From: Minisyncoccota bacterium
GTDB lineage: Bacteria; Patescibacteriota; Minisyncoccia; Minisyncoccales; RBG-13-42-11
Direction: 5' to 3'
DNA length: 46,295 nt
NCBI GenBank assembly: GCA_028712445.1
Contig: JAQTPY010000006.1
Location: forward strand, 1 to 46,295
A model generated the notes under the pieces. That model had not been told where the DNA came from. It did no database searches and was given only the letters and a program-made list of their open reading frames with translations. A program made the translations under genes and the position numbers. This document shows positions 27,803 to 29,812 of the stretch, in pieces (positions within the stretch are counted from its first letter, which is position 1; every line of letters begins with the position of its first letter).

Positions 27803-27847
27803 CCCAACAAAAAATCTCCTTTAATTAAACTCAGGAGGTTTTTTGTT
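27803..27847. repeat. Hairpin repeat, copy 1 (also a terminator)
   Basis: A 45-base element, 44/45 identical to 28404-28448. It folds into a 15-bp stem (27806-27820 with 27833-27847) with a 12-base loop and ends in six T on the plus strand, so it can terminate the tRNA transcript. The reverse strand also carries a T run. Confidence 0.9.
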
Positions 27848-27875: not shown

Positions 27876-28380
27876 TCAAAAAATTAAATTGGTTATCAAT
27901 TTTATTAATGTGTCTTTCTCCTTGGGATTGCTGGCTGCAATTAAAAGAGCTAATACGGTCAGGGCATTATCATTAATCTTCCTCTCCCCGCTCTTCTTGT
28001 AAAAACATTCGTTTTTGTCTAGTAGGTAGATAAACAAAAACGAGGCGATTCTTTTATTTCCATCAACAAAAGGATGATCTTTTACTGCAAAATACAAAAA
28101 ATGCGCAGCTTTCTCTTCAATGCTTTGATATAATTCTTTACCTCCGAGAGTCAGAATTAGCAATGTGCAAATTTTGCACATTGCTTTTTTCTATAAGTTC
28201 CCCGCTATTAAAAATATTACGCAAATGTTTAGTAATAGAACTCCTTTCTGTTCCAAAAAGCCGGCTGATTTGGTCTTGCGTCAACCAAACAGTTTCCTTG
28301 TCCAACTTCACGTCCAAAGTCGGCCCTTCCGGACTTTTATAAATTATCATTTCTCCCCTTTTAATTTCTTTTTCTTTCAT
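27876..28380 (-). pseudogene. RhuM/Fic family gene with internal deletion and frameshift
   Basis: Two frames on the minus strand correspond to the two ends of one RhuM-type protein. Positions 28380-28138 encode the N-terminal part with the helix-turn-helix (TVWLTQDQISRLF, then SSITKHLRNIF) and end at IANSDSR. Positions about 28150-27876 continue in another frame with LGGKELYQSIEEKAAH and the Fic motif HPFVDGNKRIASFLF. Intact family members are about 330 residues; roughly 150-180 residues between these ends are missing here. I infer a deletion that joined the ends out of frame. The Fic motif is intact, so a short product from an internal start cannot be excluded. Confidence 0.8.
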
Positions 28381-28403: not shown

Positions 28404-28448
28404 CCCAACAAAAAATCTCCTTTGATTAAACTCAGGAGGTTTTTTGTT
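28404..28448. repeat. Hairpin repeat, copy 2 (also a terminator)
   Basis: The second copy of the 45-base element, same orientation as 27803-27847. The stem extends to 16 bp (28405-28420 with 28435-28450). On the minus strand it ends in six T and would terminate the candidate RNA starting near 28680. Confidence 0.9.
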
Positions 28449-28680
28449 GGCCCCACCACCTAGCAGATTTATCGGAAAAAAATCCAAGTGGGAATCTTAG
28501 TCCCGCTCCACGAAGCGGGAATCATATCTGATTCCCTATAAGAACTTTTGTACCAGATCTAACTAGGGTGGCGGAGCCCCCTTGAAAACTATAGAATAAT
28601 TTCCAAAGGGGCTCCTCCTTGCCTAAAAATTTTGCTTGAATGAAATTCAGATTTAAAAAAACTTGGGGATCTTCCCCAAG
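28405..28680 (-). ncRNA. Candidate structured non-coding RNA, family not recognised
   Basis: A near-consensus promoter (28684-28713) starts minus-strand transcription near 28677-28680. The RNA would begin with hairpin CTTGGGGA/TCCCCAAG (28662-28680) followed by seven U. Next is a 16-bp hairpin (28576-28591 with 28603-28618) with an 11-base loop; its two G-U pairs fit only the minus strand. A helix with one bulge (28563-28571 with 28456-28463) encloses two overlapping hairpins, and the 16-bp terminator hairpin ends it. No long reading frame fits: a 63-codon frame starts with the TTG of the -35 box. It does not show tmRNA, RNase P, SRP or T-box signatures. Confidence 0.6.
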
Positions 28681-28683
28681 TAA

Positions 28684-28713
28684 ATTATAACCTGCGTCAA
28701 AATTTCTTGTCAA
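28684..28713 (-). promoter_or_regulatory. Near-consensus promoter in a gene-free region
   Basis: Minus strand: perfect -35 TTGACA, 18-base spacer, perfect -10 TATAAT, beginning 7 bases after the stop of the kinase at 28721. Confidence 0.85.
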
Positions 28714-28720
28714 ACGAATG

Positions 28721-29812
28721 TTATTGATTCTGCAACCCCAAAGCTTTTACAGTTTGCTTAATTAAGGAAACGACCACAGGAGGAGGCATTAAGCTGAAGT
28801 AAGGATCCTCCACTCCGTCGTTAATCACCCAGGGCCTTTCCTTGACTATTGTTTTTTGATCCTTTTCATCCCACTCGTAATAGTACTCTGGAGTGAGCTC
28901 GTAATCGTCAACATATTCGGAAGCGTTCTTTTGAGGAACTGAATTCCTTAAAAGCACTTTGGGTACTCCATAAAGAGAATAAGCCATTTCCATCATTTTT
29001 TGGTCTTTTTCCAATCTATCTTTAATGGGGGCTATTCCCTGCTCATCCCCTTCTTTCTCAACCATTTTTGGATTTCCCTGACAAAGAGGATTATCGCAGA
29101 GCAGGGAAAATTCCTTGCTTTTGACATCGTAATCTATTTTTGAAGTAGGAAGCAGTTTTATGCTTCTTGATGTCTGACATTTAGGACAAATCCTTCTGTA
29201 TTTGATTCTTTCATCAATTATTTTTTCAGGAACGTCGATTAAAACAAAAAGGTCCGGATCGTCTCTATATCCGATCAGGTCGCGAAGAAATAAGGCAAGA
29301 TTAATTTGGTCTAAATCTCTGGGAAAACCGTCAATAAATAAAGTTTTCTTTTCTCTCCTGGCAATCTCTCTTTTTGCCAAAATCAAAATCAATTCTGTGG
29401 GCAAAAGGGTTTTAGTGCTTCTCTTTTCCAAGGAGGCCATCAAATCCTCTACCTGAGTCCATCCGCGGTAATTTTTCTTTAAATAATCCATTAATTCTGC
29501 TTTCTTTTTTTCATCCTGCAATTCCTCATCCAGAGTCCTTATCATGTCGCCAATTGAAAAATGATCTATTTTTGAGGGATCAACCGCTTCAGCAAACATT
29601 TTAGAATAAGTTCCCTTACCGGAATTCTTTTTTCCGAGCAAATAAGCAATGAAAGTGTTTCCACTGTTAAAATACTCTCTCAGAAGTCTTATTTCTTCAC
29701 TGGCTTTGTAATCAAAATACTCCGCCCTTTCTTTGGGGTTGTTTAAATCAAACTTTCTGTCTAAACCCTTTATCTTTGTTTTAAATAGAGGAAACTGCAT
29801 AATTTTTTCCAT
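28721..29812 (-). CDS. Adenylate-kinase-like nucleoside monophosphate kinase, large form
   Basis: A 363-residue paralog of adenylate kinase. The P-loop GKKNSGKGT is at 60-68, after a 50-residue N-terminal addition; DGFPRDLDQ is the usual NMP-binding motif. A LID region has CPKC and CDNPLC cysteines, likely a zinc site. About 100 residues beyond the kinase fold include a Tyr-rich YYYEWDEKD stretch. True Adk is encoded at 10350-11012, so this one may act on another nucleotide; I cannot tell which. Start 29812 overlaps the upstream gene; ATG 29800 is an alternative. Confidence 0.8.
   Translation of the reverse strand: MEKIMQFPLFKTKIKGLDRKFDLNNPKERAEYFDYKASEEIRLLREYFNSGNTFIAYLLGKKNSGKGTYSKMFAEAVDPSKIDHFSIGDMIRTLDEELQDEKKKAELMDYLKKNYRGWTQVEDLMASLEKRSTKTLLPTELILILAKREIARREKKTLFIDGFPRDLDQINLALFLRDLIGYRDDPDLFVLIDVPEKIIDERIKYRRICPKCQTSRSIKLLPTSKIDYDVKSKEFSLLCDNPLCQGNPKMVEKEGDEQGIAPIKDRLEKDQKMMEMAYSLYGVPKVLLRNSVPQKNASEYVDDYELTPEYYYEWDEKDQKTIVKERPWVINDGVEDPYFSLMPPPVVVSLIKQTVKALGLQNQ

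What the first reader, a model, noticed from the sequence alone, without database searches (positions are those of the whole stretch)
28405..28713. Candidate new structured RNA with a near-perfect promoter and terminator
A minus-strand TTGACA-18-TATAAT promoter starts into a gene-free stretch. The predicted RNA (about 275 bases) opens with an 8-bp hairpin and U7, carries a 16-bp hairpin (28576-28618) whose G-U pairs fit only this strand, has an enclosing helix around 28456-28571, and ends in a 16-bp terminator. I see no signature of tmRNA, RNase P, SRP RNA or T-box.
Basis: partly seen in the sequence, partly recalled or inferred. Interest (0 to 1): 0.75.

Follow-up and report, generated by a model that had tools for sequence, protein, structure and literature searches.

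The report
Divergent 6S RNA in Patescibacteria (CPR)
The "unknown" RNA is real: it is the long-diverged 6S RNA (a decoy promoter that ties up RNA polymerase) of a large group of tiny uncultured bacteria, present once in most of their genomes but missed by the standard RNA library.

Summary
A perfect TTGACA-18-TATAAT promoter, two 5' hairpins, a structured core and a strong terminator lie on the minus strand, with no Rfam hit. Homologs show that the conserved RNA is not the whole 275 nt but a 130-nt rod (28578-28449). It occurs once per genome in 177 of 247 genomes of the order, with massive compensatory change: 94% of cells paired against 69% in shuffles, and 701 double changes against 195.

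The interpretation "new RNA class" does not hold. Rfam's 6S model (RF00013), run blind, lands on this same locus and strand in 9 of the 11 order genomes where it fires. In the wider phylum it coincides with my model in 21 of 21 genomes where both fire, two of them above Rfam's own cut-off. The RNA has the 6S layout: closing stem, central bubble, apical arm, and the 6S motif CCCACYUGGA. It is a compact 6S RNA (SsrS) of a Patescibacteria order, invisible to Rfam in the window itself.

One unusual feature remains: in this genome and at seven other loci of 89, a 65-105-nt leader separates promoter and 6S, here with a hairpin that competes with the closing stem. RNAP binding and pRNA synthesis are inferred, not shown.

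The parts
28708..28713 (-). -35 element TTGACA of the distal promoter
   Evidence: relatives have TTGACA at the same place right after the adk-like stop codon
28684..28689 (-). -10 element TATAAT of the distal promoter (105 nt before the 6S core here; within 14 nt in 80 of 89 homologs)
28661..28681 (-). leader hairpin 1 followed by U7; resembles an intrinsic terminator placed at the expected transcription start
28579..28683 (-). 5' leader between promoter and 6S core; absent from the other family members aligned, comparable leaders in 7 other order members
28573..28615 (-). leader hairpin 2 (20 pairs); its 3' arm overlaps the first 6 nt of the 6S core and so competes with the closing stem
   Evidence: two folds -88.4 and -87.4 kcal/mol
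28449..28578 (-). 6S RNA core (compact, 130 nt), R1/R2 model match
   Evidence: 123.8 bits; 103.8 bits
28563..28578 (-). closing stem, 5' strand
   Evidence: covariation in helices 1 and 2
28449..28463 (-). closing stem, 3' strand
28553..28558 (-). inner closing helix (P2), 5' strand AUCUGG; partner CCGAU at 28475-28471
   Evidence: helices 3 and 4
28537..28552 (-). 5' strand of the central bubble (UACAAAAGUUCUUAUA); predicted pRNA start at C28550
   Evidence: unpaired in the covariation consensus; pRNA start inferred by position
28490..28536 (-). apical arm: GGGAAUC (28536-28530) with GAUUCCC (28496-28490), internal loop and terminal hairpin
   Evidence: helices 5 and 6
28476..28489 (-). 3' strand of the central bubble (ACUUGGAUUUUUUU), carries the 6S motif (CCC)ACYUGGA
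   Evidence: alignment of homologs to RF00013
28405..28450 (-). intrinsic terminator of the RNA; near-identical second copy at 27803-27847
   Evidence: sequence

Best explanation
The minus-strand RNA is the 6S RNA (SsrS) of this Patescibacteria lineage. It is a 130-nt rod with a closing stem, an open central bubble (about 16 and 14 nt) and an apical arm, which mimics melted promoter DNA. By analogy with E. coli and B. subtilis 6S RNA it should bind the housekeeping-sigma RNA polymerase holoenzyme and block promoters. It should be released when polymerase uses the bubble as a template for a short pRNA, which unwinds the inner closing helix; the predicted start is C28550, giving 5'-GUACCAGAUCUAAC. 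Shown here: homology, structure, promoter and terminator, single copy. Inferred: transcription, RNAP binding, pRNA. In this genome the RNA is probably made with a leader of about 100 nt, whose hairpin abuts the 6S 5' end and may be removed by processing.
For: (1) A model from ten homologs finds one copy per genome in 177/247 order genomes, two in a few. A 90-sequence model finds 69/188 of the class and 98/380 of the phylum, one match per genome. (2) Rfam 6S RF00013, independent of my models, in the order: 11 hits at E <= 1. Nine are the same locus and strand as my RNA, best 5.4e-8 and 7.7e-8; one weak hit lies elsewhere (G119, E 0.52); one was not checked (G062). Against all 4227 families, 6S is the best non-tRNA match at the two best loci, E 8.1e-6 and 9.6e-6. 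(3) In the phylum sample, 21 of 21 genomes with both a 6S hit and an R2 hit agree in place and strand, two of them above the Rfam cut-off; the other two cut-off 6S genes are found by R2 without filters. (4) 30 pairs: 94% of cells paired against 69% shuffled, covariation 0.733 against 0.245, and at most 0.160 when slid by 1-3 columns. (5) The consensus leaves both central-bubble strands open and conserved, and aligns GGGAGYC..GRCACCCACCUGGA to the 6S consensus. (6) The promoter -10 ends within 14 nt of the core in 80/89, with promoter scores far above shuffles and a terminator-like hairpin in 47/90 against 1% shuffled.
Against: The window sequence itself does not match RF00013 (E <= 1), and no order member reaches the 6S cut-off. 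The reciprocal search with R2 does not find E. coli ssrS. The core is shorter (130 against 187 model positions). No expression or binding data. In the window, the terminator-like hairpin at +1 raises the question how well the gene is transcribed.
Confidence: 0.93

Rival explanations
1. A genuinely new rod-shaped housekeeping RNA that only resembles 6S RNA.
For: No member of the window's order reaches the RF00013 gathering score (0 of 247); the window copy has no 6S match.
Against: RF00013 and my models pick the same loci blind, in 9 order and 21 phylum genomes, including genes above the Rfam cut-off. Shared bubble motif.
Confidence: 0.04
2. An Ms1-like RNA that binds the RNAP core without sigma (as in Actinobacteria).
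For: 6S-like rod; in the window extra 5' hairpins and a long transcript recall Ms1 (about 300 nt, extra hairpins at both ends, PMC9130861).
Against: Most family members have no extra hairpins and are about 130 nt. The matching Rfam family is 6S.
Confidence: 0.02
3. The SRP RNA of this lineage (also a rod with one hairpin).
For: No SRP RNA is found in 39 genomes, so the slot is empty.
Against: The protein partner is missing too: the Ffh M domain is absent in 19/19. The SRP domain IV motif is not seen in the sequence. 6S matches, SRP does not.
Confidence: 0.005
4. In the window genome the 6S gene is decaying: an insertion with a terminator-like hairpin separates promoter and core, so the RNA is hardly made. 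(This is compatible with 6S identity and concerns only the window's copy.)
For: Leader absent from the other family members aligned; hairpin + U7 at the expected start site; the core-proximal -10-like TATAGT has no good -35.
Against: The core is intact with a well-paired closing stem, and comparable leaders with well-formed promoters and hairpins occur at seven other loci.
Confidence: 0.12

Closest known systems
6S RNA / SsrS (Rfam RF00013; E. coli ssrS, B. subtilis 6S-1)
   Same: Rod with closing stem, open central bubble, apical arm; GGGAG..CCCACCUGGA around the bubble; single gene with sigma-70-type promoter and terminator; the two models co-locate.
   Different: About 130 nt instead of about 187-200; no window match to the Rfam model; neighbours are an adk-like gene and tRNA-Pro(GGG), whereas the E. 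coli gene lies between zapA and fau; optional 5' leader with competing hairpin.
Truncated B. subtilis 6S-1 variants (6S78, 6S82cp; PMC8876501)
   Same: Show that a bubble with short arms, almost 60% shorter than wild type, still binds sigma-A RNAP and makes pRNA, so a 130-nt natural 6S is plausible.
   Different: Engineered; about 10-fold weaker binding.
Ms1 RNA of Actinobacteria (PMC9130861)
   Same: 6S-like rod; extra terminal hairpins as in the window's leader.
   Different: About 300 nt, binds RNAP core; not the Rfam family that matches here.

Membership tests
6S RNA (RF00013) | Window sequence scores at or above the Rfam gathering cut-off (46.4 bits) | tested here: not met
   this is a detection threshold, and membership therefore rests on family-level homology, not on this score
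6S RNA (RF00013) | Homologous to genes that do pass the 6S cut-off | tested here: met
   R2 finds G460 and G421 at the 6S locus, and L135 and L137 without filters
6S RNA (RF00013) | Closing stem - central bubble - apical stem rod with covariation | tested here: met
6S RNA (RF00013) | Conserved, mainly single-stranded 5' and 3' bubble strands | tested here: met
   consensus GGNACAAA..UUUU and ACUUGGAUU..UUUUCC
6S RNA (RF00013) | Stand-alone, usually single-copy gene with own promoter | tested here: met
6S RNA (RF00013) | Length about 180-200 nt | tested here: not met
   130-nt core; length is not diagnostic, see truncated variants in PMC8876501
6S RNA (RF00013) | Central-bubble collapse helix between the 5' bubble strand and the 3' strand of P2 (B. 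subtilis type) | tested here: inconclusive
   family mean above all 200 permutations (4.86 against 4.49), but rows are related and the window offers only 4 pairs
6S RNA (RF00013) | Binds sigma-70-type RNAP holoenzyme and templates pRNA | not testable with these tools
   needs biochemistry
Bacterial SRP RNA (RF00169) | Matches the model; Ffh partner present | tested here: not met
tmRNA | ARAGORN/Rfam detection | tested here: not met

The most novel reading that the evidence does not exclude
The leader hairpin is a regulatory switch on 6S itself: in the window, the 5' strand of the closing stem can pair either with the leader (20-bp hairpin) or with the 6S 3' end, at nearly equal energy (-88.4 against -87.4 kcal/mol), so processing, a protein or transcription speed would decide when an active 6S rod forms. 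Related leaders with a UURGAARUUAU/AUARUUUYUAA-type hairpin next to the 6S start occur in order members of several families and, by exact pattern, nowhere else in 247 genomes.
Probability: 0.12. Interest if true: 0.65.

Novelty: new member of a known kind. Interest (0 to 1): 0.48.

Why it matters
6S RNA is one of the few RNAs that regulate RNA polymerase globally, and I found no held paper that reports it in Patescibacteria/CPR. Finding it once per genome in most genomes of an order, with relatives across the phylum, means that these streamlined cells kept this control even where SRP is not detectable. It also gives a covariance model that raises detection in the order from 11 of 247 genomes (loose) or 0 of 247 (cut-off) with the Rfam model to 177 of 247, and a natural minimal 6S for structural work.

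Tried and rejected
New RNA class: dropped once the 6S model co-located. SRP RNA. tmRNA. Coding: the 63-aa ORF is mechanical. Folding z-score as strand evidence: both strands give about -6. Mobile element or MITE for the leader: the leader-hairpin pattern occurs once in each of four genomes, always abutting 6S, so no dispersed element; note that the pattern was derived from those four. Helix P3 inside the bubble (used in R1) was dropped in R2 because relatives break it. Reciprocal hit of R2 on E. coli ssrS: none, presumably too distant. Phage collection: no match. RNase P RNA was not searched genome-wide; the Rfam scan of the window includes it and gave no match.

Full report
What is there. The minus strand of 28713-28405 carries a 12/12 sigma-70-type promoter, two leader hairpins, a structured core and a 16-bp terminator. 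No Rfam family reaches its cut-off; a permissive scan gives only noise. Both strands fold equally well relative to shuffles, so comparative data were needed.

Homologs. A DNA search of 59 genomes found the core in 10 including the window's own, as short matches centred on 28566-28469. Aligned with their flanks, the homologs show the same order: adk-like gene, promoter (TTGACA..TATAAT), RNA starting a few nt after the -10, terminator, often a convergent tRNA-Pro(GGG). Over 90 order members, the adk-like gene lies upstream on the same strand in 55 and a convergent tRNA-Pro lies within 400 nt downstream in 26. Promoter scores of 10/12 or more were seen in 68 of 90 loci, against 33 of 1800 shuffles; terminator-like hairpins in 47 of 90 against about 1%.

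Structure. A covariance model of ten sequences (R1) found matches in 177 of 247 order genomes (134 of 178 high-quality ones), nearly always one per genome. On 90 of these (A4), 30 pairs in six helices have 94.0% of cells paired against 69.0% when partners are shuffled, 701 cells with changes on both sides against 195, covariation 0.733 against 0.245, and at most 0.160 for any slide of 1-3 columns. The alignment was fitted to R1, which favours its pairs, but the unfitted MAFFT alignment of ten already shows double changes in 12 of 32 pairs. The helices are: closing stem, inner closing helix, GGGAGYC/GRYWCCC apical helix, terminal hairpin. Between the inner closing helix and the apical helix both strands are conserved in sequence and have no consensus pairing: a central bubble.

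Identity. A blind search with Rfam 6S (RF00013) hit G032 exactly at its R1 locus. Extended to 247 order genomes it gave 11 hits at E <= 1. G068, G079, G032, G171, G225 and G232 coincide with R1 matches; G145, G151 and G195 coincide. G119 (E 0.52) lies elsewhere, and G062 was not checked. At the two best loci 6S is the top non-tRNA match among all 4227 families, over the full model (E 8.1e-6, 9.6e-6), aligning UUAGGGAGCC...GGCACCCACCUGGA to the 6S consensus around the bubble; another member gives E 0.0064. In 380 phylum genomes R2 matches 98 and RF00013 30 (E <= 0.1), four above cut-off. In the 21 genomes with both, place and strand agree every time, including two of the four above cut-off. The other two are found by R2 with filters off (E 0.0067 and 3.4e-5). 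R2 does not reach E. coli ssrS, as one may expect for so distant a relative. This is family-level homology; the window's own sequence does not match RF00013 on its own.

Mechanism (inferred). 6S RNAs are rods with a central bubble that mimic an open promoter, bind sigma-RNAP, and are released when a pRNA starting in the 5' bubble strand unwinds helix P2 (PMC8876501). Truncated 6S-1 RNAs with an almost 60% length reduction still run this cycle (same paper), so a 130-nt natural version is plausible. By position the pRNA should start opposite C28550 and read 5'-GUACCAGAUCUAAC. The B. subtilis-type collapse helix has some family-level support but only 4 pairs in the window.

The leader. In 80 of 89 members the best promoter's -10 ends within 14 nt of the core. 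In eight members, the window included, it lies 65-105 nt upstream and a leader intervenes; a ninth (L101) has a 10/12 site 42 nt upstream and a 9/12 site at 6 nt, and is not counted. Leaders of the window, L031, L034, L040, L056 and L061 share a hairpin of the type UURGAARUUAU...AUARUUUYUAA immediately before the 6S start; L060 and L103 carry leader segments complementary to the 6S start. In the window the hairpin's 3' arm includes the first 6 nt of 6S, and the two competing folds differ by 1 kcal/mol. A strict pattern for the hairpin occurs only next to 6S in 247 genomes, though it was derived from the four genomes it finds. Processing site, switch or neutral addition cannot be told apart here.

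What is new. No held paper joins 6S RNA with Patescibacteria, CPR, Saccharibacteria or Parcubacteria (the one co-occurrence is unrelated). Subscription papers are not covered, and Rfam's model already reaches cut-off in 4 of 380 phylum genomes, so 6S in the phylum may not be unknown. New here: its identification in this order, its near-universal single copy, its compact form and the leader variant.

Noticed in passing
27876-28380 (-) between terminator copies 27803-27847 and 28405-28450: Two out-of-frame ORF pieces, RhuM-like by eye (28138-28380, no Pfam hit) and partial Fic/DOC (27876-28181, PF02661), lie between two near-identical terminators (98% over 45 bp). In relatives the RNA terminator is often followed directly by tRNA-Pro, so this looks like an inserted, frameshifted gene with a duplicated terminator.
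   Followed up: partly
window's genome and relatives (G000-G038): The signal recognition particle appears to be missing: no SRP RNA in 39 genomes, no Ffh M domain in 19, and no convincing Ffh/FtsY GTPase domain in 19 (one hit over cut-off, two weak), while the same searches find them in 13, 14 and 14 of 14 control genomes.
   Followed up: partly
window 28683-28579, and L031, L034, L040, L056, L061, L060, L103: Optional 65-105-nt 5' leaders of the 6S gene, with hairpins or segments complementary to the 6S start; in L034, L060 and L103 the transcript start looks like a second copy of the 6S 5' end.
   Followed up: partly
L012 (G020), minus strand after the RNA: Here no terminator is evident and an ORF (ATGGCAGATAAAAAACAAG...) starts within about 10 nt of the 6S 3' end, unlike in other members.
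   Followed up: no
28721-29812 (-): Adenylate-kinase-like protein of 363 aa (PF00406) directly upstream of the 6S gene; homolog upstream of the RNA in 55 of 90 order loci.
   Followed up: partly
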